Part shown: positions 17,076 to 32,714 of the stretch, piece by piece
Numbering within the stretch: the first letter of the stretch is position 1
Layout: the number at the start of each line of letters is the position of its first letter
Assembly (NCBI GenBank): GCA_017544165.1
Contig: JAFYER010000009.1
Coordinates: 1-64,000, forward strand
DNA from: Bacilli bacterium
Lineage (GTDB): Bacteria; Bacillota_I; Bacilli_A; RF39; UBA660
Length of the DNA stretch: 64,000 nt
Reading direction: 5' to 3'
Position numbers and translations under genes: made by a program
Notes under the pieces: model-generated
Told to the model about the DNA's origin: nothing
The model's database searches: none
The model's input: only the letters and a program-made list of their open reading frames with translations

Positions 17076-17098
17076 TTTTGCCACCTAAATGCCACCTA
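17076..17098. repeat. attachment-site-like direct repeat, left copy
   Basis: 23 bp identical to 30540-30562. Internally it is two tandem copies of GCCACCTAA separated by AT. It starts 4 nt beyond the stop of the recombinase remnant. Confidence 0.7.
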
Positions 17099-17101
17099 AA
17101 A

Positions 17102-17263
17102 TTATTCATCTAATTTATCAATGGTATTAACTATATCATCAAGTTTGTTTCTATACATATGCGAATATGTATTTAATGTTTCATCAATCTTTGTATGTCC
17201 TAAATACTTAGCAACCATAACTATAACTCTTTCCCCTATATCATCTTTTCCTTTGTATTTCAT
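17102..17263 (-). pseudogene. C-terminal remnant of a tyrosine recombinase/integrase
   Basis: 53 codons. The core VAKYLGHTKIDETLNTYSHM is the last part of phage/ICE integrases: LGH supplies the late catalytic histidine and TYSH the nucleophilic tyrosine. The catalytic Arg, Lys and HxxR boxes and the DNA-binding arm are missing, so it cannot recombine DNA alone. Oddly, its ATG at 17263 has an ideal AAGGAGG ribosome site 5 nt upstream, so the peptide may be translated. It sits against the left 23-bp repeat. Confidence 0.75.
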
Positions 17264-17521: not shown

Positions 17522-17557
17522 AGGCAGAAGAAAAAGACAGAAGTTTTTCTTCTGCCT
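17522..17557 (-). repeat. perfect 14-bp inverted repeat after last ssp gene
   Basis: Arms 17522-17535 and 17544-17557 are perfectly complementary with an 8-nt loop, beginning 4 nt after the stop of the last operon gene. There is no T run, so it is more likely a 3'-end stabilising hairpin than a terminator; the terminator lies about 70 bp further on. Confidence 0.65.
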
Positions 17558-17561
17558 ATTA

Positions 17562-18098
17562 TTAATTTTCAAATAATTTATTTAAGTCTAAATCAATATT
17601 TTCCTTTTCCATTCTATCATTACATTCTGAAATAAATGAATACATATTTGACATATAATCATCTATAGATGTGGCATTATCTAATAGTTTTTCTTTTAGT
17701 ACACTTATTCCACCAAGAATATACTTTTCATAAATCTTTTCACATTCCTCTTTTTCAGGAGTTCCATCTGCATATCTAAAAGCACGATTAATTCTCTCAT
17801 CTAAATCAATTTTTGACTTATCATGTAATAACATTATTAAAGAATAATTAAAAATCAAAATATCTTTATTAGTACTTAGCTGTTGAAAATTTATTTTTTT
17901 ATTTTCATCGTTGTCAGGATTATTTATATCTCTATCTTCTAAACGATTATATAAATAGCCAACAATTGGAGCAATAAATAATACGTCAATGTTTCTTTGA
18001 AAAATAGAGAAATTCTTAGAACCATCTATAACTGATGTTAATTTACTTACACATTCACCATGTTTACCAATAAAATTATAATCTGTTTTATTAAACAT
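17562..18098 (-). CDS. last gene of Ssp island; candidate restriction-module protein (178 aa)
   Basis: 178 aa, soluble, helical, with charged middle and C-terminal parts; no recognised domain or nuclease motif. It shares the TAATG junction with the upstream SMC-like ATPase gene and has a good SD (GGAGG), so it is translated with it. By position it is the last of four genes following the modification genes and may be the small subunit of the restriction complex. That assignment is inference. Confidence 0.6.
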   Translation of the reverse strand: MFNKTDYNFIGKHGECVSKLTSVIDGSKNFSIFQRNIDVLFIAPIVGYLYNRLEDRDINNPDNDENKKINFQQLSTNKDILIFNYSLIMLLHDKSKIDLDERINRAFRYADGTPEKEECEKIYEKYILGGISVLKEKLLDNATSIDDYMSNMYSFISECNDRMEKENIDLDLNKLFEN

Positions 18099-20128
18099 TA
18101 TTTATCGCCTCCTCTACTTATCACACTATCTAAAGGAACTTCAGGCGTTCTCAACGATAAGTTATATTCAATTCCAACTTTATCATTTAAATATTTTTGA
18201 GCTATTTCACCATCTGGTTTATCCTTAATAAAGATAATAACTTGTCTTGCAATTCCAGGAATTACATCACAAATGTTTTTAATACGTTTTTGATCAAATG
18301 ATGATAGTGGTGCATCCATAACCAATGGATATTCTCCATTGGTTGGAGCGTCTATACTGTCTTTTTTAGCTGTTTTTTCTCTTGCCATCTTAATAACACC
18401 AACAATAAAAGCAAATATAACTGAATAACTTTTTGCAGTATTGCTATCAATACTAGATGTTTCATTTTCTAATTCATCTACATATGTCTTTATTCTATAG
18501 TTATTATCTATAGAAATAGTTACACCGCCATCATATATTGATTCAAACAATGTATTAATTTCCTGTTCAAGCTTATTACGAACCTCGTTCTCACGATATT
18601 CATAGGAATCTTTAATCATTTCATATGCAGCTTTAGCATATTTTCTTTGAATTTCAAAAGAATCATTTTTCTTTTCTTGTAATTCTAGCTTTGTTAAATC
18701 ACTATTAATTTTACTATTATCTTTTTCTCTTAAAGATATATCTGATTTTAACTCAATCAATTCGTTTTCGCTAAGTCTTAATGCTTTCTCATATTCTGTT
18801 TGATTATTCTTAATATCTACAATTTCAATATTCTTATTCTTCATTATATTAGTATTATATTCTGCAATAGTATGTTCTTTTTCATCAACTTGATTATCAA
18901 TCGTTCGAATTGTACTAATATTATCTTTCATATTCTCAAAAAAGTTTTCACTACTTCTTAGACTATTCTTAGCCGCTTGTTTAAAGAAATTTATTTGTGT
19001 TCCTAATGATTGTGGTGGTATAAATTTTAATAATTCTTCCAAATGCTTAACCGCATCACTATTATTATCAGATAAATCTGCACCGCAAATACAAGTACCT
19101 CTTTTTCTTAAAAAATCTATAGTTGATTTTCTAATATCAGGAATTCCATTATCCAAATCACCGCTACTAGATAAATCCTCGACCGCTTCCTTAATCATTT
19201 TCTTTGAAAGGAATTTATAAGTTATAGATGAGAACGCAAAAGTAAAATTTGAAATGTTTTTTTGCTTCATATCCTTTAAATGTGATAAATCTTTTTCAAG
19301 AACATTTAACCTTTGTTGTTGTTCTTCTATATCTTTAAAGTTAATTAATTTTTCTTTACATTCATCAATAGATCTTTTATAAAACGCAATTTGATCTTCT
19401 AATTCAGCTATACGAACTTTGTTTTTTTCAATTTTTTCATTGTTATTATAAAATCTTCTTCTTAGTTCTTTTGCTTCTTGGCTTCCATTATCATCTATTT
19501 GAGAATTATATCTTCCTATTACACTTGCACTTAATGAAGGATTAAGATGATCTAAAGCCTGACTTAAGGCATCAAGTCCCAAAATATTTTGGACAGCTTC
19601 TTTAAAGTCACTTGCTTTACTTCCACTTAAAACTTGCTTTGACATGTCATTAATTCTTTCACCATCAAAGAAGAAATACTTTGATAAATCCTCTGGTAAT
19701 ATGCTATTAATAATTGAAGTGCTTTCAGCATATTCATGATATTTTGTTTGTCCATAACTATCTTTTTCAGAAACAGAAAATTTTGGACTTTCAGCTTTCA
19801 TATTGCCAAGAGAATCTTTTTTATATACTTGAGATCTAGTTATAGTATAGTCAATATCATTATGTTCAATCTCTAAAGAAACAGATACAGTTTGCATATC
19901 ATTTGCAATCATATCCTTTTCAACTAATGTATTTAATAAGCTTTTATTTATAAATCCATCAGTTTTTCCATACAAAACCCACTGAAATGCTTGTGCTAAA
20001 GTAGTTTTACCAGCACCATTTTCTGCAAGTACTAATGTGACATTTTTATCTTCTGATGTTGAAAAAATCATTTCATGATGACCTTTAAATGGTCTAAAAT
20101 TATCAAGAGTTATCTTTTTTAATTGCAT
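18098..20128 (-). CDS. DndD/Rad50-like SMC-type ATPase of the Ssp island
   Basis: 676 aa. The Walker A AENGAGKTT is at residues 35-43, followed by a long coiled coil (about 200-340 and 380-520). A zinc-hook-like CICG is in the middle (about residue 344), and Walker B/D-loop YPLVMDAPLSSFDQ lies near residue 600. This is the layout of DndD and small Rad50/SMC ATPases, and the length is close to DndD. In phosphorothioation loci such ATPases occur in modification (DndD) or in restriction. Here the dedicated ATPase SspC is also present, so a restriction role with the adjacent helicase is the more likely reading. It overlaps the upstream 65-aa gene. Confidence 0.85.
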   Translation of the reverse strand: MQLKKITLDNFRPFKGHHEMIFSTSEDKNVTLVLAENGAGKTTLAQAFQWVLYGKTDGFINKSLLNTLVEKDMIANDMQTVSVSLEIEHNDIDYTITRSQVYKKDSLGNMKAESPKFSVSEKDSYGQTKYHEYAESTSIINSILPEDLSKYFFFDGERINDMSKQVLSGSKASDFKEAVQNILGLDALSQALDHLNPSLSASVIGRYNSQIDDNGSQEAKELRRRFYNNNEKIEKNKVRIAELEDQIAFYKRSIDECKEKLINFKDIEEQQQRLNVLEKDLSHLKDMKQKNISNFTFAFSSITYKFLSKKMIKEAVEDLSSSGDLDNGIPDIRKSTIDFLRKRGTCICGADLSDNNSDAVKHLEELLKFIPPQSLGTQINFFKQAAKNSLRSSENFFENMKDNISTIRTIDNQVDEKEHTIAEYNTNIMKNKNIEIVDIKNNQTEYEKALRLSENELIELKSDISLREKDNSKINSDLTKLELQEKKNDSFEIQRKYAKAAYEMIKDSYEYRENEVRNKLEQEINTLFESIYDGGVTISIDNNYRIKTYVDELENETSSIDSNTAKSYSVIFAFIVGVIKMAREKTAKKDSIDAPTNGEYPLVMDAPLSSFDQKRIKNICDVIPGIARQVIIFIKDKPDGEIAQKYLNDKVGIEYNLSLRTPEVPLDSVISRGGDK

Positions 20129-20316
20129 TGTAATTCCTCCTCAATAATTTTCATTATCTTTTTCTTTACTTCATCAGAATTGGTATGGTTATTAACCGCA
20201 TCTTTTTCTAAAGTTAAAATTCTCTTAACAATTAACTTTAATTTTTCATTATCAATTGGATTTTCATCAGCTGGAACTTGTTCAACATTAGTATCTTCCA
20301 TATTATCATTATTCAT
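20119..20316 (-). CDS. small acidic/helical protein (65 aa) between helicase and SMC ATPase
   Basis: The product begins MNNDNMEDTNVEQVP and has an acidic N-terminal half and a helical, Lys/Glu-rich C-terminal half. It overlaps both neighbours (start inside the end of the helicase gene, end inside the start of the SMC gene), which is strong evidence that it is a real gene. No family recognised. DndE is a small helical protein in Dnd loci, but no DndE signature is visible here. Confidence 0.6.
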   Translation of the reverse strand: MNNDNMEDTNVEQVPADENPIDNEKLKLIVKRILTLEKDAVNNHTNSDEVKKKIMKIIEEELQCN

Positions 20317-22477
20317 ATGATCCGTCCTCCATTTCTATTATATCATCATCGTTATCTAACAAACGATACGTTTCTTTTATTTCCTCAATCATTTTATGTG
20401 ATTCCATAGAATTCATTGCAATTCTTCCAAATTCTGTTAGTCTATTTAATTCGTTTTTAACTAATCTCTTTTCTGAACGAATTTCATCATCAGTAAGACC
20501 AGAGATATCTTCTAACCTTCTAGGCAAAGTAATAAAGTCATATATTTCAGCAAAATCTTTGCCTTCCATTTTTCTTAAAACTCTACCTCTTCGTTGTATA
20601 TATTCTTTTGGATTAGTTGTACTTGCTAAAATAAATGCTGTTTTAATTGCCGGAATATTAACGCCTTCATCAAGACATTTAATAGCTACTAAAGCTTGCA
20701 AACTTTTACCATCAGCAAATTTTTCTTTAATTATCGCTCTTGTCTTAGGATCTTCTCTTGAAGTGAACCTGTGTACCTTCATATCAAACTGATTTCCTAA
20801 CATTCTGGTTATTACGTCAATTTGTTTTATATCTTCACCATTTTCATCCTGTTCATCTACTCTTGCAGAGCCACAATATACAAGTATATAATTATCATCT
20901 TTATATGGTTTAATGTAGTGAGCTAATGTTTCAATTTTGTTATACGCTCCCGCTATTATTCTTGCTCTTGCTCTAACCAACTTTTCTCCATAATCATTTA
21001 ATTTATTTTTACCATTCTTTTTAATAATACATTTTGCAATTTCTCTTGAAATAGCGTGATATTTTTCTAATTCTTCATCGGTTAATGTAACAATTATTGG
21101 ATAGTATCTATACTTAGTTAAAAATTTTCCTTCAATTGCTTCTTCTAAAGTATAAATAATACATTTTTTTTGAAAATAATTGGTTAATGTTTCAGTTCCT
21201 TCTTCATCTCCGTGTCTTTCAAATGTAGCTGAAAGGGCTAATCTGTATTTAAATCTATCATCAAGTGTTCTTAATAATGTTGGTGAACCAAAATTATGTG
21301 CTTCATCAACTATTAATAATACATTGCCTTTTAATTTGGAAATTTCAGCTTGAATTTCTGGACTACTATATGTCGCATTTGTCGATATAAAACAGAAGAA
21401 ATCTTTTACCCCCAGGTTAAAATCTAACACTGCTTTTTTTAATCTTTGTTTAAAATCTTTTTGTGGTGAGCCACCATATCCAATAATTGGCGACATATTA
21501 AATCCAATAATATCTTCAACCCACTGATTCACAAGATGAATCTGCGGACATGCAATAAATACTGATAGTTTTCCATCACATTTTTCGTATAATTTACAAA
21601 TAGAAGCTAGACCAGTGTATGTTTTTCCTGTTCCAGTTGCCATATCATATATTCCAATATAATTATTTTTTGCCCATTCATCAATTGCTCTTTCTTGATA
21701 TGGAAATAATTTTTTCCCAAATGGGATTCTCGGAATATTTGTAGTAAAATTTTCATCTGCCGACATTTTGCTCAATTCTTCTTCTGCATCAATTTGCCAA
21801 TTTACTTTATCCTTTTTATAGGACAATATTTTATCAATAGGTGCAGCTGGGAAATCAAAAACTCTAGCATTCAAATCAACATTATTCCATAATTGGTCAA
21901 AATATTTTTCTTTTCCTTCAACTCTATCTAAATCATCCCATGAAGTAAATACATCAAATGATTCATAATTATCATTAAAGGCTGTTTTTGTTTCATTCAT
22001 AGATCCGGAAAACGCTACAATATTACCTTCTTTGTCATAAAACAGACCTTGTTTTTCATGATACAAGCCTAATTTATATTGATTATTAACTGAATATGCA
22101 ATTTTAATATCTAGTTTCCCCATTGCAATTAAATTTGCAAGCATATTCAATCTTTCTTCTTCATAATAATTTTGTGGTTCTGTTATACCATTTAATAGTG
22201 CCTCTGTTTCTACTTCAACTCTATTTTTATATCCAAGATTAATAGCATTTAGATCATCATCAGAAATAACTGGAGATACAATTAACTGTATTTTCCCATC
22301 ATTTTTTATCAATTCAGAAATACCGTAAGATAATTCAACCAAAGATGAAGAAGAGAAAAAACCAACACTTCTTTTATACAATTTTGATTCTTTAAGTAAA
22401 GGAATATAAAAATTTTTAATTACATTATCACCGGGTGTTCTATAATCTTTTTTCAAATAAACATTTAAGAAACTCAC
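20309..22477 (-). CDS. SF2 helicase with N-terminal phospholipase-D-like domain
   Basis: 722 aa. Residues 1-220 form a PLD-like phosphodiesterase domain with YHEKQGLFYD (H140-E-K142) and FSGSMNET (about 157-164), an HxK...GSxN site. Residues 250-720 are a superfamily-2 helicase: Walker A MATGTGKT (279-286), DEAH box IVDEAHNF (DEAH at 391-394) and motif VI QRRGRVLRK. The start is GTG 22477 with AGGAGG upstream. Such PLD-helicase fusions occur in restriction and defence modules; here it probably translocates on and cuts DNA lacking phosphorothioate. It may correspond to part of the reported SspFGH module, but I cannot assign the letter. Confidence 0.85.
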   Translation of the reverse strand: MSFLNVYLKKDYRTPGDNVIKNFYIPLLKESKLYKRSVGFFSSSSLVELSYGISELIKNDGKIQLIVSPVISDDDLNAINLGYKNRVEVETEALLNGITEPQNYYEEERLNMLANLIAMGKLDIKIAYSVNNQYKLGLYHEKQGLFYDKEGNIVAFSGSMNETKTAFNDNYESFDVFTSWDDLDRVEGKEKYFDQLWNNVDLNARVFDFPAAPIDKILSYKKDKVNWQIDAEEELSKMSADENFTTNIPRIPFGKKLFPYQERAIDEWAKNNYIGIYDMATGTGKTYTGLASICKLYEKCDGKLSVFIACPQIHLVNQWVEDIIGFNMSPIIGYGGSPQKDFKQRLKKAVLDFNLGVKDFFCFISTNATYSSPEIQAEISKLKGNVLLIVDEAHNFGSPTLLRTLDDRFKYRLALSATFERHGDEEGTETLTNYFQKKCIIYTLEEAIEGKFLTKYRYYPIIVTLTDEELEKYHAISREIAKCIIKKNGKNKLNDYGEKLVRARARIIAGAYNKIETLAHYIKPYKDDNYILVYCGSARVDEQDENGEDIKQIDVITRMLGNQFDMKVHRFTSREDPKTRAIIKEKFADGKSLQALVAIKCLDEGVNIPAIKTAFILASTTNPKEYIQRRGRVLRKMEGKDFAEIYDFITLPRRLEDISGLTDDEIRSEKRLVKNELNRLTEFGRIAMNSMESHKMIEEIKETYRLLDNDDDIIEMEDGSYE

Positions 22478-22488
22478 TAATACACCTC

Positions 22489-23619
22489 CTATAGTGTCTT
22501 TAATGCTGATATAAGATAATCTATATCTTCAAAAGTATTGAAATAGTTCAAACTAATTCTTACAGTACCATTATACATCTTTGAACCAATAAAGTCATGA
22601 ACCAGTGGTGCACAGTGAAATCCCGTTCTAACAGCAATATCAAATTCATCATTTAATATTGACCCTACCTCATCAGCACTATATTTATCAATTCCAATAG
22701 AAACCACACCAAATATTTTATTCTCATAATCTTCAGGTAAATATAATTTAACATTGTTTAATTGTTTTAAACTATTAATTAAATAATGTGTAGCATCTAA
22801 TTCTTTTTCATAAACTTTTGTTTTTTGTAACCAATCAATGCTTGCATTCAATCCTGAGATTGCAACAATATTTGGACTACCTGCCTCATACGCCATATGA
22901 CCATTATCTGGCATATTAGGATTCATTGTATCTGAACCGTTTCCACCAAAAATAAATTTATTTAACTCAACTGTATTTTTCTTAACAAATCCGGCAATTC
23001 CAAATGATGCATATAATGATTTATGCCCTGCAAAAACCAAAAAGTCAATGTTACTATTATTTTCTACTTCTACAACTCCAAACGCTTGTGACGAATCAAG
23101 TAAATTAATTGAATTATATTTTTTACCTAATGAGAATATATTTTTGTATGGAAGTATTAAACCTGTAACATTACTTATATGTGATATAAAAATTGCTTTT
23201 GGTCTATTAATTGCAAACATATTCTCCAGCATATTATAATCTGGAATCCACGATTCTGTATTGAAAGGTATCGTTAATACATTTAATTCATATTTGTTTT
23301 TTACAACTTCAAGTGCCCTTATTATTGAATTATGCTCAAATGGTGAAATATAAATATTATCGCCCTTATTATAATTTAATCCTAATATTATATCGTTTAA
23401 TGATTGTGTCGCCGAAGATGTAAAAATAACATCAGCATCTTTCATATTACTTATTTTTCTTATTTTTTCTCTGACATTTTCAATTAATACAGAACCATTA
23501 GCTGCAACTTTATAACTGCCCCTTCCAGTATTAAATGCATTTCTATTTGCTTTATCTAAAGCATCTAAGACTTCATTAGGTTTAGGAAATGTTGTTGCAG
23601 CATTATCTAAATAAATCAT
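22489..23619 (-). CDS. sspA: cysteine desulfurase (SspA-like)
   Basis: 376-aa class V aminotransferase-fold enzyme that takes sulfur from cysteine using PLP. The PLP lysine is in FAGHKSLYASFG (K200) and the active-site cysteine in RTGFHCAPL (C336), the group II (SufS/CsdA-like) pattern. The product begins MIYLDNAATTFPKPN. In this operon it should supply sulfur for DNA backbone phosphorothioation. No iron-sulfur scaffold genes are nearby, which argues against a housekeeping role. SD AAGGTGG precedes the ATG. It lies between sspC and the helicase, an unusual order. Confidence 0.85.
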   Translation of the reverse strand: MIYLDNAATTFPKPNEVLDALDKANRNAFNTGRGSYKVAANGSVLIENVREKIRKISNMKDADVIFTSSATQSLNDIILGLNYNKGDNIYISPFEHNSIIRALEVVKNKYELNVLTIPFNTESWIPDYNMLENMFAINRPKAIFISHISNVTGLILPYKNIFSLGKKYNSINLLDSSQAFGVVEVENNSNIDFLVFAGHKSLYASFGIAGFVKKNTVELNKFIFGGNGSDTMNPNMPDNGHMAYEAGSPNIVAISGLNASIDWLQKTKVYEKELDATHYLINSLKQLNNVKLYLPEDYENKIFGVVSIGIDKYSADEVGSILNDEFDIAVRTGFHCAPLVHDFIGSKMYNGTVRISLNYFNTFEDIDYLISALKTL

Positions 23620-23631
23620 ATTTCACCACCT

Positions 23632-26600
23632 TTACATAAATTTTTTCATTATATTTAGCAGTATATTAACCTTCTCCTCTTCACTTATTGAGCTTCCATA
23701 CTCATCAATTATCTCTTCAATATTGTTTTTCATTGTTTTTCCTAACGCAGAAATATTATCAGAAGATGTTAAATTCTTTTCTATCGTTTTATCATTATTC
23801 ACAACTATAATTCTTTGTGAATTATCTTCCATATTAGTTTTATCATTTAACTTAGCAATTGTACTTTTAAAGTTTGAAATATACTCATCCTTTTGATTTG
23901 CTTGCCAATCTTCTACGTAGAAAGAAGTAAATATTTTTGATAATTTTTCAATGACGTCATGTTCGTCATGTGTGTTAAGATTATCTAAATAATCAATAAA
24001 GTTTCTCGTTTTAATATCATAAATATTATTCTTTATTGATTTATCAAGTTCTTTATTACACTCCATTAATAAAGTGCTTAAACTTCCTTTATATTTAGAA
24101 TTTATTAACTCTTTAGTATCTATTATCAATTTTTCAAGATAATTAGAAATATAGCTATCAAACGAATTTTTCATCACTGTTATTTTTTCAACAATCTCAT
24201 TTTTATTTTTTTCATTAAATATGTTTGGAAGTGCTACAAATAAGAACTCGTTATTGTTTATATCTGGTCTTAATAACTCTGATTTAACTTTTATATACTC
24301 ATCTATTATATTATTTTCAGCATCCGGGATATTCATTTCCCTAATTATTCTAGGTAAACCAAATATCCACTTTTTCATAGAGTCAATTAGTTCAACCACA
24401 TTTAATCTTATATTTGAATTTATATTTTGAACTCCGAATATTTTTTCTAAAGAATTAACATATTCAATTCGATCTACTGTACCTTTTTCAGTTAATATAT
24501 AATAATTATCAGGATTATCATTTATTTTTACTAAGTTAATAGAATTTAATTCTATTTCTCTATTCATATAATAAAAGATAATATTATCAGAATAATCTCT
24601 AATAGCTAATGCAACAAGAACAGGAATTGTCCCAAATCTCATTGAATATGGTTTTGAACAAATTGTTTTATACAAATCTTTAAATGACTTTTTATTATTA
24701 TCAGTTGATTGAATAAACTGTTTTATTATTTCAATAATACTTTTTATTGATTCGGTTTCACTCTTATCAACAATGGCTTTATATATAGTAGCCTCAGCAC
24801 TTGTTTTACTCTTAATTAGATCATAATTGTTTTCTAATATTGATTCTATTACAATTTCTCTAGCTTTTTTAATTGGAGCGGATAAATCATTTTTATTAAT
24901 TAGTTCATTATTAATTATTGGTGTCAGTGAATATACTGATTCACAAATACTAGATAATATAGAACTTAAATTTTTCTTTTTGCTATTTTTTTGATTAAGA
25001 TAAACATATTCTAGTATATTATCATCAGAAAAATAATACTTATAAGCATCTTTTACTGCATTTACTAATTCATTTTTCATTAATTCCAATTCAGACATAA
25101 CATCTTCATCATTATAATTGTTATTAATTAAATAATTAACTGCTTCATACTCTTTTAACAATGATAAGAAATTTTTCTTAAAAGCAAGTTTAGATATTTT
25201 TAATACTGCTCTATCATCACTAATACTTCTGAAATGATTAATTATTTCATCAATGTTTTTAGATGTTCTAATCAAATTTAAGACTATTCCATCTGATGAA
25301 TCCTGATTGTGAAAAATATCAAAGCTACTCATGTTCATTATTTCACTTTCACTAATAAATATATTAGTAAAGTATCGTGTCATTTTATATTCTTCATTAA
25401 ATCTTCTTGGTAAAGAATAAAATCTTCCTATAATTTTATCTAAAACACCTTTCTCATTTATATCAGAGAATTGATTATTAACAAGTTCCTTAATATCAGA
25501 AGTTAATTGCTTACTATACATAGTTGCAAAGTCTAAATCATCAGTTATTTTTTTCTTTCTAAGATAACTTTTTTCAAGTAACTCATCCAATGCTTTATTA
25601 AAACTTTTTTCGCTCATGTCTAGAGACAATCTTACTGTTTCAACATTAGTATTTAATTCATCTAATTCATTTATCATAAAAATAATTGAAACTGATTTAA
25701 TAATTCTTTGAGCGTCTACAGATATATTTTTCCTTAAAATGTTAGTTGCTTTATACCAAATATCTTTAATTTTTGAATCTACAGTACTTTTAAATAATGA
25801 TTCAAAATAATCATAAACTTTATCAATATTAAATAATCCAGTACTATTTGTTTTTACAAAACTTTTCAAACTATTTGAATCATCATCTGTTAAAAATGTA
25901 AATAAAGTTCTTTCATTCTGTGCAATTTTTTCTGATAATTCTATTAAAGAATATGTCGTCACAGGATTTAACGGAAAACACCCTTTAAATAAAATTTGTT
26001 CTATATCAACAGTATTATTAAATATGGTTAAATCTTTTAAAGAAAGATAAGTAGAAGCATTTTTGTTTAAATATTCCTCATAGAAGTCGTCAAAACCTTT
26101 TTGTTTTTCCAATGCATAAGAAACAATTTCATAATTTTGCTCCATGCTTCTGTTAAAATAAATATTTTTAAATCTTCCTTCAACAGTTTTATAAGCATTA
26201 ATTTTGTCTTGATCATCATCATTGACATATTCACTCATACCTTTATGAGTTATACAGCTTAAATAAATTTGCTCACTTTTTCCTGTTCTATTTGCTAGTT
26301 CAGCAAAATCTTGGAGAATTTTCAAATCCTTCATTATAGAATTTGAATCACTAACATCTAAGAACTTGCTAAATTCATCAAAAGCAATAAATATTCCAGT
26401 ATATCCTTTTGAGTCTAATAGATGTGTAATATCTTTAAAATTTTTAATAATATCATTGTTTACTAATGGATTAAAAGATTGACCATGTGTAATACATTCA
26501 TATACATTTTTAAAAACGTCATATGCCTTTTTGTCATATTTTTTTAAACCTTTTTCAAGTTTATCAAATGTTGTATTGCTGTCAGTAAAACATTTTTTTA

Positions 26601-27126
26601 AACTTCCGTTTATTTCAGAATGATTTTGATGCCAATCAATTAGTATATTACGTGCGACATCAAATGACGTATCAATTACAATATCATTTATGCCTACTCT
26701 CTCTAATGCATCATTTATTCCCAGCATAAATGCTTGATTCAAATCGTCATAATTACTATTAATAATAATTGGTAACAATTTCAATTCATTATTTCTAACA
26801 TTAGATAACAAACCAAATAATTCTAAATCTATTTTTTTTATTTTTTCTAATAATTCATTAATAACCTTCTTATCAGATAAATCATAATCGGATAAAAGCA
26901 TTAATAATACAAGTAATAAATGTGACTTTCCTTTTCCGTATGGTCCTATTAGAGATGTAGCTCTATTTTTACCATTTAAAATGCTATTAACATAAAATTT
27001 AATTATTTCACAACCATCTTTTGTAGGAATGTAATTTCTGATTTTATCTATGTTATTTAAATCAAATTGTAAATTAACTGAATATTGAAAATTCTCATTT
27101 ACTTTAATATAGTCATGATATTTCAT
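23632..27126 (-). CDS. sspC: large P-loop ATPase, SspC-like
   Basis: 1164 aa. The P-loop SLIGPYGKGKSHLL is at residues 58-71, preceded by FDLNNIDKIRNYIPTKDG. Then comes a Walker B-like IFIAFDEFSKFLDV and several hundred helical residues. Large ATP-binding proteins of this kind sit next to DUF4007 proteins in Ssp loci, where SspC energises sulfur incorporation. The ATG is 3 nt after the sspB stop, with GGAGG as SD. The C-terminal 600 residues show no domain I recognise. Identification rests on the P-loop plus neighbourhood. Confidence 0.75.
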   Translation of the reverse strand: MKYHDYIKVNENFQYSVNLQFDLNNIDKIRNYIPTKDGCEIIKFYVNSILNGKNRATSLIGPYGKGKSHLLLVLLMLLSDYDLSDKKVINELLEKIKKIDLELFGLLSNVRNNELKLLPIIINSNYDDLNQAFMLGINDALERVGINDIVIDTSFDVARNILIDWHQNHSEINGSLKKCFTDSNTTFDKLEKGLKKYDKKAYDVFKNVYECITHGQSFNPLVNNDIIKNFKDITHLLDSKGYTGIFIAFDEFSKFLDVSDSNSIMKDLKILQDFAELANRTGKSEQIYLSCITHKGMSEYVNDDDQDKINAYKTVEGRFKNIYFNRSMEQNYEIVSYALEKQKGFDDFYEEYLNKNASTYLSLKDLTIFNNTVDIEQILFKGCFPLNPVTTYSLIELSEKIAQNERTLFTFLTDDDSNSLKSFVKTNSTGLFNIDKVYDYFESLFKSTVDSKIKDIWYKATNILRKNISVDAQRIIKSVSIIFMINELDELNTNVETVRLSLDMSEKSFNKALDELLEKSYLRKKKITDDLDFATMYSKQLTSDIKELVNNQFSDINEKGVLDKIIGRFYSLPRRFNEEYKMTRYFTNIFISESEIMNMSSFDIFHNQDSSDGIVLNLIRTSKNIDEIINHFRSISDDRAVLKISKLAFKKNFLSLLKEYEAVNYLINNNYNDEDVMSELELMKNELVNAVKDAYKYYFSDDNILEYVYLNQKNSKKKNLSSILSSICESVYSLTPIINNELINKNDLSAPIKKAREIVIESILENNYDLIKSKTSAEATIYKAIVDKSETESIKSIIEIIKQFIQSTDNNKKSFKDLYKTICSKPYSMRFGTIPVLVALAIRDYSDNIIFYYMNREIELNSINLVKINDNPDNYYILTEKGTVDRIEYVNSLEKIFGVQNINSNIRLNVVELIDSMKKWIFGLPRIIREMNIPDAENNIIDEYIKVKSELLRPDINNNEFLFVALPNIFNEKNKNEIVEKITVMKNSFDSYISNYLEKLIIDTKELINSKYKGSLSTLLMECNKELDKSIKNNIYDIKTRNFIDYLDNLNTHDEHDVIEKLSKIFTSFYVEDWQANQKDEYISNFKSTIAKLNDKTNMEDNSQRIIVVNNDKTIEKNLTSSDNISALGKTMKNNIEEIIDEYGSSISEEEKVNILLNIMKKFM

Positions 27127-27128
27127 AA

Positions 27129-27980
27129 TTACCTCCTATCAAAATATTCACTAAATATATCACTTAATGATAAAACTTTACTCATATAAATCATATTTAA
27201 TCCTGCTGTTCTATTAATTGTAATTAAATCATTTCTTCTCATGTCGTCTAAATAATCATTAAGTAAATTTTTATCTAAATTTAACAATCTTGATGGACTA
27301 TTCTGTACCTTCAATAATTCATCAATGCTAATATATTCCCTTCCATCTAATATTTTTAATATTAAGAAATATACTACCAAGAAATTCAAATTTCTATAAT
27401 TTGGTTTTAATAATTCATAATTATCCTTGCTAATTCTATTTAATAATTCCAAATCCGCTAAAGGACAATTAAAATTGTTTTCAGGATTATCAGTTGAACT
27501 ATCAACTACATATGTTTTAATAATCATGTTAATTTCATCAACTAATATTTTGTCATTATATTCTAATCTTTTTGTCTCTAAAACATTAGAAACAATATTA
27601 AATACTTCTTCCTTTGAAAAGTTTTTGGATAAAATTTTATTAAAGAATAAATTTCCAACATAGAAGTCGTCTTCATTTAACAATAAATTAATGTGAATCA
27701 TCCACCAAGTGAACTCATCTTCCATATATGGATCATATTCTAAAATCAAGTTACCAAACTCAGTTATTTTTATACTATTTTTTTCATCTTTGATTAAATT
27801 AGTAGCATATAACCAATATTTCAAGGATTTAACCATATTAGTACCAATACCTAAGGCATCTGTAGCATCATCCATAGAAAATACTCTACTATTATTTTTT
27901 ACCGCTAATAATCCCTTAGATAGCCAGCCCTCTCTAATTGAAAAGCTTTCATGTCGTTTCATTTTTACCTTATTTATCAT
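27129..27980 (-). CDS. sspB: DUF4007 protein, SspB-like nickase
   Basis: 283 aa. The N-terminus RHESFSIREGWLSKGL and the following LGIGTNMVKSLKYWL are the signature of DUF4007. From the literature on SspABCD systems, SspB carries this domain and nicks DNA so that sulfur can be placed on one strand; that role is transferred here. ATG 27980 (GGTGA upstream) and ATG 27962 (AAGGT upstream) are both possible starts. It lies between sspD and sspC with gaps of 2 nt. Confidence 0.82.
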   Translation of the reverse strand: MINKVKMKRHESFSIREGWLSKGLLAVKNNSRVFSMDDATDALGIGTNMVKSLKYWLYATNLIKDEKNSIKITEFGNLILEYDPYMEDEFTWWMIHINLLLNEDDFYVGNLFFNKILSKNFSKEEVFNIVSNVLETKRLEYNDKILVDEINMIIKTYVVDSSTDNPENNFNCPLADLELLNRISKDNYELLKPNYRNLNFLVVYFLILKILDGREYISIDELLKVQNSPSRLLNLDKNLLNDYLDDMRRNDLITINRTAGLNMIYMSKVLSLSDIFSEYFDRR

Positions 27981-27982
27981 AT

Positions 27983-29719
27983 TTATTCACCGTCACTTTT
28001 CGTCCTTAATACTTTCTTTAAATAACAACCACCTGAAAAATGCGAAACACACTCTAAACATCCAACACATTTTTTTTCGTCAATCAAGTAAGTAATATCA
28101 TTATCATTATTGTTTCTTGCTGAAATAGCATTATGTTTACAAACACTTTCACATGCCCTACATGCTAAACAAGTTTGATACTTTGTTATCTGATATTTAA
28201 TATACATTTCTATATATTTTTGATTTTTTATGTTTTTAGGCATGTTCAAAATTGATATTTTCACAATTTTGTCACCTATTTTTCCTTTAATTTTTAATAT
28301 TGGTTGTTTATTAGCCCTATTTAAGACATATACTTCCCCTAATCTTTTATTTCCTATATTAAAGTCTAAAATACCAAATGGTTTAAAAAGTTCATATAAA
28401 GTAGTTGTAATAGATCTATTTAATTCAAAATTCAATGTATTTTCTTCTAAAACACAAGGTTTAAATGAAATAATTGCATTTTTGCTATAATCTAATCCAT
28501 TTCCCCCTTGACGAGCTTTCCAGCCTCCAGTACTTACATACTCCTCAGGATCTGGTTTTCCAACCTGTTTTGCAAAATCTATAAGAATTTTGTGAAATTC
28601 AGTATATTCTTTATTCATATAAATATGTGATAAAAACTCAGACCAATATCCGTTATTAGGACAGCACCAGCAGCCAACTCTCGAGAATCCTTTTCTATAT
28701 GCTGGATTAAAAGGTATTTTTTTAGACAATATATACAACCACACATCAAAGTCTAACCAATCAATAATAGGAGCAGCAACCTTTTGTTTTGTTATTTTTG
28801 CCCCATTACTTTCTCTATCATATTTTTTTCTTGCTAAAGATTCATTTCTACGCAAGCCTTGGAAAGATAATATTTTAGTTTTATTCTTAAATGTAGCTTC
28901 AATTTTTCTTGTTAAAGATCCTGTTTTAAAAATTGTACAACACCAGCGCATCATTCTACTTGGCGGCCCAACAATCTTACATAAATCATTAAAATTTTGA
29001 TCTTTATTTTTAGCTACTAATAAAGGTGTGGTTGGATAATATTTTTTAAATTCATCCAAATATACTGCTGTTTCAGGATATTCAAGTGTAGTATCCCCAT
29101 AAAGATGAATAACATTTGGAGTTCCCAATGCATTAATCACTAAATCACTAGTTACAGAAGAGTCCTTACCACCAGAAAATGAAACAAACATAGAATCAAA
29201 ATCATAATCAGCTTTAACATCTTTAATAAAATCATGTGCTTCCGTAACTATATTATTTAATCTAATTTCATTTGCTTTAACAAAATTAACAACGAATGGT
29301 TCGTTATAAAATGAATCAATATATTTCAAATTTTGTTTTTCTAATTCTTCTATTTTTTCTCTAATTGAATCAGCGTCTTTTGTTCTAGCTATTTCTTTTA
29401 AAGATAATTTTATTTTTTTTCCATCTACATAATAATTTCCGCCAGAAGTGCACCAAACAGATTTTCTTGCAAAAGATAATGGTTTATCTAAAATTACTTC
29501 AATCAATAATCTCTCTTCAGGAAATACTGGTCTAATATCTGTCCCAATATATTTTCCCTTTTCTCCGCATAATGGGCAAACTTCTTCATATAAAGGCATG
29601 TTGCAGTGATTACAATAAAATATCTCTGACTTACTCACATATGTTCTTTGATTACAAACAGGACAGGTACTTGTATCACAGATAAGATGATTACAGTTTG
29701 AGCATTCATATTTAATCAT
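27983..29719 (-). CDS. sspD: PAPS-reductase-like sulfurtransferase with zinc ribbons and ferredoxin domain, SspD-like
   Basis: About 578 aa in three parts. N-terminus: two zinc ribbons (CSNC...CPVC and CNHC...CPLC). Middle: an ATP-pyrophosphatase/PAPS-reductase fold with the PP-loop FVSFSGGKDSS near residue 187, plus RMMRWCCTIFK and GCWCCPNNG, cysteine-rich as in DndC/SspD. C-terminus: two [4Fe-4S] ferredoxin motifs, CLACRACESVC and CVGCLECVSHFSGGC. It should adenylate DNA phosphate and transfer sulfur. The start overlaps the end of the upstream regulator; I choose ATG 29719 because GGTGG is suitably spaced. ATG 29725 is also possible. Confidence 0.85.
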   Translation of the reverse strand: MIKYECSNCNHLICDTSTCPVCNQRTYVSKSEIFYCNHCNMPLYEEVCPLCGEKGKYIGTDIRPVFPEERLLIEVILDKPLSFARKSVWCTSGGNYYVDGKKIKLSLKEIARTKDADSIREKIEELEKQNLKYIDSFYNEPFVVNFVKANEIRLNNIVTEAHDFIKDVKADYDFDSMFVSFSGGKDSSVTSDLVINALGTPNVIHLYGDTTLEYPETAVYLDEFKKYYPTTPLLVAKNKDQNFNDLCKIVGPPSRMMRWCCTIFKTGSLTRKIEATFKNKTKILSFQGLRRNESLARKKYDRESNGAKITKQKVAAPIIDWLDFDVWLYILSKKIPFNPAYRKGFSRVGCWCCPNNGYWSEFLSHIYMNKEYTEFHKILIDFAKQVGKPDPEEYVSTGGWKARQGGNGLDYSKNAIISFKPCVLEENTLNFELNRSITTTLYELFKPFGILDFNIGNKRLGEVYVLNRANKQPILKIKGKIGDKIVKISILNMPKNIKNQKYIEMYIKYQITKYQTCLACRACESVCKHNAISARNNNDNDITYLIDEKKCVGCLECVSHFSGGCYLKKVLRTKSDGE

Positions 29720-30182
29720 TGCCATCACCACCATCAAGTTCTTTTAAAACACTTAAAACAAAGGCAATATTTTCTTCTTTTTGATTCTTTGATTGTTTCT
29801 TCTGAAAATTAAAAAATCTTCTCAATTTTACAACTTTTCCATTATTTTTTAACGATATAATACTATTTCTCACAGATGTAGATACTCCATTAGTAGATAA
29901 TTTATTATTTAACGAGATTTCAACTGCGGTTTTAGGAACTCCGCTAATTAATCCGTACTTTTCTATTAAAGCTTCTTTTGCATTAGGTTTTAAAATATTT
30001 AAACAATCATCAAACGCCTTAATAAATTCCATATAATTTACAACATCAAAAGAAGGATTAATAATGCACTCATAAATGTTTTCTTCTAAAAATCTAAATA
30101 CATAAGTTAAATTATATTTTCGCAAGCGATTTTCTTCAAATAATGCTTTTAACTTTTCTGCAGTGATTCTTACTTCATTCAC
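29712..30182 (-). CDS. sigma-region-4-like regulator heading the ssp operon
   Basis: 156 aa from GTG 30182, chosen because AGAGGG lies 6 nt upstream; a longer frame to 30275 reads back through the promoter and is unlikely. The segment ALIEKYGLISGVPKTAVEIS, followed by VSTSVRNSIISLKNNGK and VVKLRRFF, copies the layout of sigma-70 region 4: an RYGL-like start, T-x-x-EI first helix, a recognition helix ending in R, and a closing LRRF. No region 2 is present, so it is not a full sigma factor; a sigma-4-type DNA-binding regulator is likely. It overlaps sspD by 8 nt and sits just behind a palindromic operator. Confidence 0.6.
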   Translation of the reverse strand: MNEVRITAEKLKALFEENRLRKYNLTYVFRFLEENIYECIINPSFDVVNYMEFIKAFDDCLNILKPNAKEALIEKYGLISGVPKTAVEISLNNKLSTNGVSTSVRNSIISLKNNGKVVKLRRFFNFQKKQSKNQKEENIAFVLSVLKELDGGDGND

Positions 30183-30539: not shown

Positions 30540-30562
30540 TTTGCCACCTAAATGCCACCTAA
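30540..30562. repeat. attachment-site-like direct repeat, right copy
   Basis: Exact copy of 17076-17098, same orientation. Confidence 0.7.
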
Positions 30563-30610
30563 TTCAATTTTTCAAAATAAGCAATGTCTCTCAATCCCTT
30601 TATTTTCAAG

Positions 30611-30663: not shown

Positions 30664-31215
30664 TTAATATTTTATGCCATCTTGTTTACCAATCATTGAT
30701 TTTTGTAATACTCTTGTTCTTTCTATGTAATCTAATTTATAAACATTAATACCTTTGAAATAATATAAGTAAGCTTCAACTGCTTTTTCATGATCATATT
30801 GACTTCTATTACCTTTTAGTATTTGTAAAGCTTCTTCTTCAGTTGGCTTAAATGTTGCAAATAATTTAACAATATCCGAGGATGATGAGTGTGACATTAT
30901 ATCAATTATTTCTTCTCTTGAAAGAAATTTTATTATTTGAATATCACTTACACTATACATACCATAATAAGGTTCTGCCCAAGTTTCGTCTTCACTTAAA
31001 ACATAATCCCCACTTCCAATAACATAGGCGACATCGATATCATTAGGATCAAAATATCTAAATACATCGCTTAAATGAACACACATATGAAAACCATTAC
31101 CATTATTGCCAAAAGAAATAGGTCCATCTATATGATAGTTTTTTCCCTCTTCGAAGAGCATTCCATACCTATTTGTTCTATTTTTATTAAACGCTTTATA
31201 ACCCATTATCTCCAT
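30664..31215 (-). CDS. DUF7666-like protein, phage/accessory type
   Basis: 183 aa. The start MGYKAFNKNRTNRYGMLFEE, then EGKNYHIDG, NGFHMCVHLSDVFRYF, is the pattern of short proteins frequent in prophages and plasmids (YK.F....C..F.Y.VGK.Y, then GFHFC..P.DVF.YY). Function unknown. The ATG at 31215 has GGGGGA 5 nt upstream and a TGtTATAAT extended -10 at 31233-31241. A truncated second copy of its 5' end lies at 32222-32263. Confidence 0.6.
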   Translation of the reverse strand: MEIMGYKAFNKNRTNRYGMLFEEGKNYHIDGPISFGNNGNGFHMCVHLSDVFRYFDPNDIDVAYVIGSGDYVLSEDETWAEPYYGMYSVSDIQIIKFLSREEIIDIMSHSSSSDIVKLFATFKPTEEEALQILKGNRSQYDHEKAVEAYLYYFKGINVYKLDYIERTRVLQKSMIGKQDGIKY

Positions 31216-31232
31216 ATGATTCCCCCATATTA

Positions 31233-31241
31233 ATTATAACA
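31233..31241 (-). promoter_or_regulatory. extended -10 promoter of the DUF7666-like gene
   Basis: TGtTATAAT on the minus strand about 20 nt before the ATG. Confidence 0.5.
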
Positions 31242-31270
31242 TGTTTTTTAGTACAACTTAAAAACAGTAT

Positions 31271-32110
31271 TTAACCTAATGGCCAACCAATAAAAGAAAC
31301 TATTTTTTTATATTTAGTTATGAAATCTTCTATTTCTTTTTTATTAATTATGATAATGTTTTTGTTTTTTTCATATTTACCATATTGATTTATATTTGAA
31401 AAGAAATAAAACTTATTCTTTGTGTAAATATTTTTATAATTTAAATCGCCTATGTTTATAGGGCCTTTTTTAATTTGAACGTATGCTAAGCTTCCATCAT
31501 TTCTTGAAAAAAGTACACACTCTTGAGTCTTTGTTGATTTTTTACAAGTACTAGAATAAATACCATAATTCTTTTTTATCTGTAAGTATAATATTATTAA
31601 TTCTTCTAATTGATCAGGTTTTATATTACTCCACATATCATTAATATTTTTTACTTGATCAACTTTATAATAATTCTTATTTGTTAATTTATTATATAGT
31701 GCTTTAGAAAAATTTGTTGTTACATCTCTGTTTTTTTGGATTTTGCAAATAGTTCCAACATTGAAGGAATCAACAATATCACCATTTACTTTTTCTTCGG
31801 TCCCCACCTCTAATATTTCACATTTTATACCATGCCAAATGTCATAATTATCATGTTCTTTTTGCTCTTCTGGAGACATTTCATTTCTAATATAATCAAC
31901 CTTATTGCCTAATACTCTACACAAATAATAAATGCTACCGCTTCTAGTCCATATTAAATCATCTTTCTTAATTTCAAAATAAGCTTTTAACACTTTTTTG
32001 AAGCTACTACTATTCCAATTAGGTTTGAATGAAATATGTTCATTAACTATTTTATTAATATCATGATTCGAATTACCAATATTATATTTAGTTTCCCAAC
32101 CAATTCCCAA
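31271..32110 (-). CDS. restriction-like protein, 5' end interrupted by a stop codon
   Basis: The open part is 279 aa from a TTG at 32110 that has no SD. The same frame stays open upstream to an in-frame TGA at 32183-32185; eight codons before that is an ATG (32209) with an AGGAG site. The original protein was probably about 312 aa. The N-terminal part (KNILGIGWE, later DLIWTRSGSIYYLCRVLG) resembles the PUA/EVE-like sensor domains of type IV-style restriction enzymes. A later ECVLFSRNDGSLAYVQIKKG could be a decayed PD-(D/E)xK core. Both readings are tentative. Confidence 0.45.
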   Translation of the reverse strand: MGIGWETKYNIGNSNHDINKIVNEHISFKPNWNSSSFKKVLKAYFEIKKDDLIWTRSGSIYYLCRVLGNKVDYIRNEMSPEEQKEHDNYDIWHGIKCEILEVGTEEKVNGDIVDSFNVGTICKIQKNRDVTTNFSKALYNKLTNKNYYKVDQVKNINDMWSNIKPDQLEELIILYLQIKKNYGIYSSTCKKSTKTQECVLFSRNDGSLAYVQIKKGPINIGDLNYKNIYTKNKFYFFSNINQYGKYEKNKNIIIINKKEIEDFITKYKKIVSFIGWPLG

Positions 32111-32209
32111 AATGTTTTTAGATTTGCAATAATTAAACGTTAATACTTGTTTATCTTTACTTTCATGAGTATGAATATTAATTCACCATAATACTATATT
32201 ATCTTTCAT
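32111..32209 (-). pseudogene. original N-terminus of the 31271 gene with nonsense codon
   Basis: From ATG 32209: MKDNIVLW, stop TGA, then INIHTHESKDKQVLTFNYCK leading without a shift into the gene ending at 31271. The TGA could have arisen from TGG by one change. Confidence 0.6.
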
Positions 32210-32221
32210 ATATAAGTTCTC

Positions 32222-32263
32222 CTAACTATTTTTATTAAATGCCTTATAGCCTCTTATCTTTAT
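32222..32263 (-). pseudogene. 5' fragment of a second DUF7666-like gene
   Basis: An SD (AAAGGAG) and 13 codons IKIRGYKAFNKNS, then TAG. They match the start of the 30664-31215 gene (MEIMGYKAFNKN) in protein and DNA; the start codon is now ATA. A TGaTATACT promoter lies just upstream. The remainder of that copy is gone. Confidence 0.65.
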
Positions 32264-32306
32264 GGCATCTCCTTTTAATTAAGTATATCATCTTTTATCT
32301 CCAATT

Positions 32307-32338
32307 AAAAAACATATAGTGTTTTCTATATGTTTTTT
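32307..32338 (-). terminator. intrinsic terminator of the Mrr-like gene
   Basis: A 13-bp perfect stem (AAAAAACATATAG and complement) with 6-nt loop and T run on the minus strand. Confidence 0.75.
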
Positions 32339-32339
32339 C

Positions 32340-32714
32340 TTAATCATAAATTCCTTCTTCGAATTCAGAGCGATCTAGAATTCTAATATTTTTTTCAAGA
32401 GCTTTATCTTTAATCTTTTGTTTGACATAAAAGTTAGTTACTATAATACCATGGGCTACATCTTCTTTTTCCATATCTTTAAACGTTTCTTCGATTTGTT
32501 TTTCAGTAATTTCAGTGTTCAAATATGATTGAACAGTATACTTAACACCATCTTTAGCTACTCTTTGATCATTATCATTTGTTTTATCACTATCTGCAAG
32601 TCTTACATCATCGATAGTGATAGGATTATAATGATGTTTATAAAACATCGTGTTAATATAATTTCTAAATTCCCTTTCATCCATATAATTGTCTACTATT
32701 TTAATTTCTTCCAT
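32340..32714 (-). CDS. small Mrr-like (restriction endonuclease-fold) protein
   Basis: 124 aa. GVKYTVQSYLNTEITEKQIE followed by AHGIIVTNFYVKQKIKDKALE and NIRILDRSEFE follows the C-terminal half of the Mrr_cat fold (kyvvQcKry..., giivTns.ft..A...A, i.LiD...L). The expected QxK is replaced by QSY, so catalytic residues may be lost. It is short for a full Mrr enzyme. SD AAAGGAAG precedes the ATG. It sits in the accessory patch between the ssp island and glmS. Confidence 0.6.
   Translation of the reverse strand: MEEIKIVDNYMDEREFRNYINTMFYKHHYNPITIDDVRLADSDKTNDNDQRVAKDGVKYTVQSYLNTEITEKQIEETFKDMEKEDVAHGIIVTNFYVKQKIKDKALEKNIRILDRSEFEEGIYD

What the first reader, a model, noticed from the sequence alone, without database searches (positions are those of the whole stretch)
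17562..30182. Nine-gene Ssp-type phosphorothioation operon with its own restriction-like module
Seen: one minus-strand operon in the order regulator, PAPS-reductase-like (SspD), DUF4007 (SspB), P-loop ATPase (SspC), cysteine desulfurase (SspA), PLD-helicase, 65-aa protein, DndD-like ATPase, 178-aa protein, with gaps near zero. Known: SspABCD inserts sulfur into one DNA strand and can pair with SspE or SspFGH for restriction. Inferred: the last four genes are a restriction module related to or distinct from SspFGH. No SspE (DUF262/DUF1524) is present. The D-B-C-A order, and a desulfurase inside the operon, are unusual.
Basis: partly seen in the sequence, partly recalled or inferred. Interest (0 to 1): 0.8.

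Follow-up and report, generated by a model that had tools for sequence, protein, structure and literature searches.

The report
Hybrid Ssp–Pbe DNA-sulfur defence operon
A nine-gene bacterial operon that, judging by its sequence, writes sulfur marks into the cell's own DNA (Ssp genes) and attacks DNA lacking the mark with a second kit (PbeABCD) so far reported only beside a different sulfur writer; this pairing is conserved across many Firmicutes and may be the missing partner of many 'orphan' Ssp modules.

Summary
Nine minus-strand genes lie end to end at 17562-30182: a regulator, SspD, SspB (DUF4007), SspC, SspA, PLD-helicase, a 65-aa protein, a DndD-like ATPase and a 178-aa protein. The modification half is Ssp, with a BrxP-like SspD. 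The last four genes are not SspFGH. They are PbeABCD, reported only with DndCDEA in the papers I could read. PADLOC hits PbeA at 3e-240 and PbeC at 6e-109; a PbeB ORF fills 78 of 79 junctions; PbeD has DndE as its top PDB match, though weakly.

The Ssp-Pbe pairing is a stable system. All seven larger core proteins lie together on one strand in 61 other loci, mostly Firmicutes, and D-B-C-A order is the norm there. Seven of nine Bacilli genomes with SspB carry Pbe beside it.

Further results: the Ssp and Pbe blocks co-evolve internally but are swapped as cassettes; a sigma-factor-like gene flanks 32 of the 61 operons, and the window's 'regulator' is a shortened relative; the window copy is bracketed by a 24-nt repeat found nowhere else in its genome, beside an integrase remnant.

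Function is inferred. I rate it a new variant of a known kind.

The parts
29712..30182 (-). Small sigma-70-region-4-like regulator (156 aa, GTG start), first gene of the operon
   Evidence: No Pfam hit. phmmer against 18,081 ORFs of related loci: its 7 best hits are all sigma-like genes beside Ssp-Pbe operons; 43 of 43 iterated hits lie within 700 nt of a core gene; hhalign to that sigma family E 1.6e-4, prob 51
27983..29719 (-). SspD: two zinc ribbons + PAPS-reductase PP-loop sulfurtransferase + C-terminal 2x[4Fe-4S] ferredoxin domain (ORF open from TTG 29737)
   Evidence: PADLOC BrxP 5e-81, SspD 6e-13; PAPS_reduct 7.6e-33, Fer4; SGGKDS 100% conserved and about 24 conserved Cys/His in 58 homologues
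27129..27980 (-). SspB (DUF4007), DNA-binding/nicking subunit of the modification module
   Evidence: PF13182 7.8e-74; solved SspB 6juf/6lb9 7.5e-11
23632..27126 (-). SspC, large P-loop ATPase (BrxC-related)
   Evidence: PADLOC SspC 5.7e-96, BrxC 1.6e-31; Walker A GPYGKGKS and Walker B DE with their key residues invariant
22489..23619 (-). SspA, dedicated cysteine desulfurase (third class-V enzyme of the genome)
   Evidence: TIGR01977 2e-104; PLP Lys200 and catalytic Cys336 100% conserved; two other class-V enzymes elsewhere in the genome
20309..22477 (-). PbeA: HKD (PLD) nuclease fused to SF2 helicase
   Evidence: PADLOC PbeA 3e-240; TIGR04095 dnd_restrict_1 7.9e-149; HxK...D, GSxN, Walker A, DEAH, QRRGR key residues at 95-100% in 84 homologues
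20119..20316 (-). PbeB: 65-aa small protein
   Evidence: Same size and place as the 66-aa PbeB of H. jeotgali (PMC6459918); ORF with a shared core in 78 of 79 PbeA-PbeC junctions
18098..20128 (-). PbeC: DndD-like ABC ATPase with CxC zinc hook
   Evidence: PADLOC PbeC 6e-109; C346-x-C348 invariant in 75 homologues; the only DndD-like match in the genome
17562..18098 (-). PbeD: DndE-like DNA-binding partner of PbeC
   Evidence: TIGR04062 weak 7e-4; AF2 model pLDDT 92.6; top Foldseek PDB match DndE 5wtu, prob 0.66, TMt 0.55, E 0.74
17535..17557 (-). Terminator-like hairpin ending the operon
30540..30563 (-). att-like direct repeat, upstream copy (1 mismatch to the other)
   Evidence: Exactly two copies in the whole genome
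17077..17100 (-). att-like direct repeat, downstream copy TTTAGGTGGCATTTAGGTGGCAAA
17102..17263 (-). C-terminal remnant of a tyrosine recombinase/integrase, beside the downstream repeat
   Evidence: PHROGs integrases E 3.6e-4 and 8.1e-4; phage integrase C-terminus by tblastn, weak; no Pfam hit

Best explanation
This is a phosphorothioation-based restriction-modification defence operon made of an Ssp writer and a Pbe effector. Writer: SspA takes sulfur from cysteine, SspD activates the DNA phosphate and transfers sulfur, SspB binds or nicks the site, and SspC powers the reaction, marking short motifs in host DNA, probably on one strand. Effector: PbeC (CxC ABC ATPase) with PbeD (DndE fold) scans DNA, PbeB is a small adaptor or governor, and the PbeA HKD-nuclease/helicase attacks or blocks DNA without the mark. 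A sigma-like protein probably controls transcription. Shown here: gene content, order, conservation, catalytic motifs, a weak DndE match for PbeD, and cassette exchange between the two halves. Inferred from tested relatives: sulfur chemistry, strand choice, need for the mark, phage defence. Sequence motif, cleavage versus block, and the regulator's role are open.
For: Profile identification of both halves. Active-site residues essentially invariant across 58-84 homologues. All seven larger core proteins together on one strand in 61 other loci; PbeB in 78 of 79 junctions. SspB-anchored sample: 7 of 9 DUF4007 genomes carry PbeA nearby. Ssp-linked PbeA form one large group with no Dnd-linked member inside. 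PbeD model ranks DndE first in the PDB. Pairwise-distance correlation 0.89-0.97 within Ssp, 0.86-0.91 within Pbe, 0.35-0.52 between, and a swap border at SspA/PbeA (L086/L093), as expected of two modules with a mark between them. Experimental precedents: DndCDEA-PbeABCD cut SNJ1 plaquing about 10^4-fold, needed PT, spared PT-modified virus and was not toxic without PT (PMC6459918); SspBCD writes C-PS-CA (PMC8092258).
Against: No phosphorothioate or phage data exist for this organism or, as far as I found, for any Ssp-Pbe pair. Discordant Ssp and Pbe trees could also mean loose association. Xiong 2019 saw no direct cleavage of viral DNA, so PbeA's nuclease role is disputed (PMC6459918, PMC10853773). 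The DndE match of PbeD is weak by E-value (0.74). In the PbeA tree some deep branches are long and their placement unsure.
Confidence: 0.77

Rival explanations
1. Two independent defence modules lie side by side in a defence island: Ssp marks DNA (or acts with another effector) and PbeABCD works alone.
For: Ssp and Pbe trees conflict in about half of supported splits. Pbe occurs without PT genes nearby in lactobacilli plasmids L109/L111. L065 has Pbe beside SspF/SspH. Some loci carry extra DUF262 nucleases.
Against: Fixed order and near-zero spacing in 61 loci; overlapping genes in the window; 7 of 9 SspB genomes have Pbe adjacent; one terminator after PbeD. Tested PbeABCD gave no protection without PT.
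Confidence: 0.12
2. The effector acts by abortive infection: PbeA is a suicidal nuclease held by PbeB and released by phage; PT marks serve mainly to license self DNA.
For: Proposed for CxC-ATPase systems by Rakesh et al. (PMC10853773). PbeB is nearly always present. HKD nuclease motif invariant. No viral DNA cleavage seen by Xiong 2019.
Against: PbeB was essential for defence and PbeA only partly so in the tested system; pbe genes were not toxic without PT.
Confidence: 0.25
3. The modification half is a split type-4 BREX, so the locus is a BREX variant.
For: SspD best PADLOC hit is BrxP (5e-81), with the ferredoxin-type C-terminus of BrxP; SspC also hits BrxC.
Against: No PglZ in the genome and none, nor BrxL, in the operon. 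SspC and SspB score far better as SspC/SspB. Ferredoxin-bearing SspD are known in Ssp systems (PMC12839542).
Confidence: 0.05
4. The operon mainly makes PT as an epigenetic mark, with a decayed or non-defensive Pbe part.
For: PT marks can act in gene regulation (reported for S. enterica TorR, PMC9239176 abstract); a sigma-like gene is linked to the operon.
Against: Nuclease, helicase and ATPase motifs of PbeA/PbeC are intact and near-invariant; the locus has defence-type neighbours (Mrr-like, PDC-S02) and mobile-element borders.
Confidence: 0.04

Closest known systems
DndCDEA-PbeABCD of Haloterrigena jeotgali A29 (Xiong 2019, PMC6459918)
   Same: Same four-gene effector: PLD-helicase, 66/65-aa protein, DndD-like ATPase, DndE-like protein, in the same order
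   Different: There the writer is DndCDEA (G-PS-ATC). Here it is SspD-B-C-A placed upstream; in the PbeA tree no Dnd-linked member falls inside the large Ssp-linked group
SspABCD-SspE (Vibrio cyclitrophicus FF75, E. coli 3234/A, Streptomyces)
   Same: Homologous SspA, SspB (DUF4007), SspC, SspD writer
   Different: No DUF262/DUF1524 SspE anywhere in the genome. SspD is about 580 aa with Zn ribbons and ferredoxin domain against a 277-aa PADLOC SspD profile. Gene order D-B-C-A
SspABCD-SspFGH (Vibrio anguillarum FF-93, PMC8092258)
   Same: Ssp writer plus a multi-gene effector that spares PT-marked DNA
   Different: None of the effector proteins matches SspF, SspG or SspH. SspFGH is toxic without PT, tested Pbe is not
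Type-4 BREX (BrxP-BrxC-PglZ-BrxL)
   Same: BrxP-like PAPS reductase with ferredoxin end, DUF4007, BrxC/SspC ATPase, often a desulfurase
   Different: No PglZ in the genome, no BrxL in the operon; DUF4007 is a separate gene
CxC ABC-ATPase/DndE systems (Rakesh 2024, PMC10853773)
   Same: PbeA-D equal their HKD-SF2 nuclease-helicase, small protein, CxC ATPase and DndE cognate
   Different: In the passages I read they are described with Dnd, cytosine methylases or alone; Ssp coupling and sigma-like genes were not mentioned

Membership tests
PbeABCD effector module | PLD/HKD nuclease fused to SF2 helicase (PbeA) | tested here: met
   PADLOC PbeA 3e-240, TIGR04095 7.9e-149 (496 bits, below its curated cut-off of 600); motifs conserved
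PbeABCD effector module | about 66-aa PbeB gene between PbeA and PbeC | tested here: met
   65 aa at 20119-20316; ORF with shared core in 78 of 79 loci
PbeABCD effector module | DndD-like ABC ATPase with CxC zinc hook (PbeC) | tested here: met
   PADLOC PbeC 6e-109; CIC 346-348 with both Cys invariant in 75
PbeABCD effector module | PbeD, DndE-fold partner | tested here: inconclusive
   PbeD profile of these loci also finds the PbeD of Dnd-Pbe locus L024 (77 bits); AF2 pLDDT 92.6; DndE is the top PDB match but E 0.74
PbeABCD effector module | PT-dependent antiviral activity of all four genes | not testable with these tools
   Needs experiment
SspABCD writer | DUF4007 SspB | tested here: met
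   PF13182 7.8e-74; 6juf 7.5e-11
SspABCD writer | SspC ATPase | tested here: met
   5.7e-96
SspABCD writer | PAPS-reductase-type SspD with PP-loop | tested here: met
   7.6e-33; SGGKDS invariant; longer, BrxP-like architecture
SspABCD writer | Cysteine desulfurase SspA with catalytic Cys | tested here: met
   Cys336, Lys200 invariant
SspABCD writer | Single-strand PT at a short motif in host DNA | not testable with these tools
   Needs LC-MS/MS or PT-seq
SspFGH effector | SspF, SspG, SspH homologues | tested here: not met
   No PADLOC SspF/G/H hit for any operon protein
SspE effector | DUF262/DUF1524 protein | tested here: not met
   No PF03235 match in the genome
Type-4 BREX | PglZ | tested here: not met
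   No PF08665 match in the genome

The most novel reading that the evidence does not exclude
Ssp-PbeABCD is a so far unreported class of phosphorothioate defence and a principal partner of the many sspBCD modules that lack SspE and SspFGH. Its writer and effector are exchangeable because the effector reads the sulfur mark generically, and a dedicated sigma-like protein ties the system to RNA polymerase.
Probability: 0.4. Interest if true: 0.75.

Novelty: new variant of a known kind. Interest (0 to 1): 0.62.

Why it matters
Wang et al. 2021 found that about 84% of 2,678 sspBCD clusters have neither sspE nor sspFGH nearby, so most Ssp writers had no known effector (PMC8092258). Finding PbeABCD welded to Ssp writers in many Firmicutes, including cultured strains such as Faecalibacterium prausnitzii ATCC 27768, Ruminococcus albus 8, Clostridium ragsdalei P11 and Oscillibacter sp. 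1-3, gives a concrete partner that can be cloned and tested. It also shows that PbeABCD is not bound to the Dnd writer, which makes the question 'does Pbe read the sulfur mark or the writer?' directly testable by swapping cassettes. The linked sigma-like gene is a second, apparently unreported component to test.

Tried and rejected
SspFGH as effector: rejected, no profile hit. SspE: rejected, no DUF262 protein in the genome. Type-4 BREX: rejected, no PglZ. A second DndD system: none, PbeC is the only match. Empty-site test for the 13.5-kb bracketed segment: failed, because the nearest sequenced relatives are too distant (the neighbouring glmS is about 50% identical). Flanking repeats in 58 other loci: exact repeats of at least 17 nt in only 3, so a common att site was not found. 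PADLOC and Pfam on the 65-aa, 178-aa and regulator proteins: nothing useful; comparative loci were needed. Krishnan 2020 and Yuan 2024/2026 papers were not held, so prior mention of Ssp-Pbe there cannot be excluded. An SspB-anchored sample outside the window's phylum could not be centred.
Full report
1. The observation. The nine genes are present as described on the minus strand at 17562-30182, separated by 2-12 nt or overlapping, with a terminator-like hairpin just after the last gene. Profile searches confirm DUF4007 (27129-27980), a PAPS reductase (27983), an SspC-type ATPase and a class-V desulfurase. DUF262 is absent from the whole 1.05-Mb, 88%-complete assembly, and two other class-V enzymes are encoded elsewhere, so SspA is a dedicated extra copy.

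2. What the last four genes are. The 722-aa protein is PbeA (PADLOC 3e-240; TIGR04095 7.9e-149), the 676-aa protein is PbeC (6e-109) with the CxC zinc hook invariant in 75 homologues, and the 65-aa ORF sits where the 66-aa PbeB sits in H. jeotgali (PMC6459918). PbeB is a real gene: an ORF of about 50-75 aa with a shared core (consensus ...IixxExxNlKTreksDxqMvkxIkKiIEEEv...) fills 78 of 79 PbeA-PbeC junctions. The 178-aa protein gives only a weak TIGR04062 match, but its AlphaFold2 model (pLDDT 92.6) has DndE (5wtu, 4lrv) as its best PDB match among 350,542 chains, at modest score (prob 0.66, TM 0.55 on the target, E 0.74). This agrees with the assignment of PbeD as a DndE cognate by Rakesh et al. 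(PMC10853773) without proving it. SspFGH is excluded.

3. The writer. Ssp identity is firm for SspB and SspC. SspD is of the longer kind seen in type-4 BREX BrxP: two zinc ribbons, PP-loop domain, and a ferredoxin-like end with eight cysteines, conserved in 58 homologues. A subset of SspD with such a ferredoxin-bearing layout was noted in PMC12839542. PglZ is absent from the genome, so this is not BREX.

4. It is a conserved system. A scan of 84,980 species genomes with a PbeA alignment gave 80 loci. In 55 of them, and in six loci from other searches, SspD, SspB, SspC, SspA, PbeA, PbeC and PbeD lie together on one strand; many of the rest are cut by contig ends. Record titles span Clostridia, Bacilli, Fusobacteria and, as MAGs that may be misbinned, Bacteroides, Methanobrevibacter, Helicobacteraceae, Alphaproteobacteria and Thermoguttaceae. 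A second sample, anchored on SspB instead of PbeA, guards against search bias: of 392 genomes of the window's phylum nine have DUF4007, and seven of these (six without the window) have PbeA close by on the same contig. The other two carry, in or near the same slot, an SF2 helicase, a GHKL ATPase and a PLD or DUF262 protein.

5. Evolution. In a tree of 107 PbeA, Ssp-linked proteins make up one large group of 91 rows with no Dnd-linked member; the six Dnd-linked ones lie outside (some deep branches are long, so placement there is unsure). A Rhizobium plasmid pairs a distant PbeA with an SspABCD-order writer, which suggests a second coupling. Distances among 61 operons correlate at 0.89-0.97 within the Ssp proteins and 0.86-0.91 within PbeA, C and D, but only 0.35-0.52 across, and about half of the well-supported splits conflict between blocks. 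In L086 and L093 the Pbe half aligns at 76% nucleotide identity from the first bases of PbeA, while the Ssp half hardly aligns. The halves therefore behave as two cassettes exchanged at the SspA/PbeA border within a fixed layout. The simplest inference is that they communicate through the DNA mark and not through tight protein contacts. That fits the experiment of Xiong 2019, in which a catalytic DndA mutant abolished Pbe activity although the Dnd assembly was expected to be intact and pbe was still transcribed.

6. A sigma-like component. A sigma-70 region-4-like gene flanks 32 of the 61 operons, and nearly all of the 42 such ORFs among 18,081 in the loci sit beside an Ssp/Pbe operon. Two main forms occur: a protein of about 370 aa with sigma regions 2 and 4 directly after PbeD, and a protein of about 700-860 aa directly before SspD in the window's nearest relatives. 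Dnd-Pbe loci L110 and L126 also have one. The window's first gene is a short relative: its seven best hits among all ORFs are sigma-like genes of these operons, and all 43 iterated hits lie within 700 nt of a core gene. I found no mention of this link in the passages I read.

7. Mobility. A 24-nt sequence occurs exactly twice in the genome, at 17077-17100 and 30540-30563, bracketing the operon. Beside the downstream copy lies the C-terminal piece of a tyrosine recombinase. The operon was probably delivered as an integrating cassette; an empty site could not be checked.

8. Mechanism. Shown: gene content, conservation, motifs, cassette behaviour. Inferred from named precedents: sulfur relay from SspA through SspD to DNA with SspB/SspC; PT-dependent exclusion by PbeABCD. 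Uncertain: the motif, one or two strands, whether PbeA cuts DNA, and whether cells survive. The suicide model of PMC10853773 is kept as the chief mechanistic rival.

9. Known or new. Reports I could read name SspE and SspFGH as partners of SspABCD and DndCDEA as the PT-writing partner of PbeABCD. Ssp-Pbe and the sigma-like gene appear unreported in the open library searched, but two key papers were not held, so priority is not certain. I file it as a new variant of a known kind: a new pairing of two known modules, widespread, with an extra regulator.

Noticed in passing
window 17077-17100 and 30540-30563; 17102-17263: Genome-unique 24-nt direct repeats bracket the operon, with an integrase C-terminal remnant beside one: probable att sites of an integrated 13.5-kb cassette.
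   Followed up: partly
L144 (215-11751) and L145 (3380-14001): Ssp writers without Pbe carry instead an SF2 helicase + GHKL (MutL/Hsp90-like) ATPase + PLD nuclease (L144) or DUF262 protein (L145): a possible further, undescribed effector module.
   Followed up: partly
L103 7971-10001, L037 7454-9646, L045 6582-8792: DUF262 (SspE/GmrSD-like) genes inserted inside Ssp-Pbe operons, so one writer may serve two effectors.
   Followed up: partly
L065 9995-22145 (Peribacillus muralis): PbeABCD lies next to SspF- and SspH-like genes with no Ssp writer detected in the fetched stretch.
   Followed up: no
L110 5864-8944 (Ruegeria plasmid), L126 10405-13065: Dnd-Pbe loci also carry a large sigma-4-like protein directly upstream of PbeA (L110 also shows a weak RNA polymerase alpha-CTD match).
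   Followed up: partly
L112 (MT835506.1), L113 (MT835493.1): Two unverified 'Bacteriophage sp.' scaffolds from human faeces carry complete Ssp-Pbe operons; they may be bacterial DNA or a mobile element. A phage-labelled protein (A0A8S5PV03) is also a strong structural match of PbeD.
   Followed up: no
window 30664-32714: Defence-island neighbours upstream: DUF7666 protein, PADLOC candidate PDC-S02 protein (31271-32110), Mrr-type endonuclease domain protein (32340-32714).
   Followed up: no
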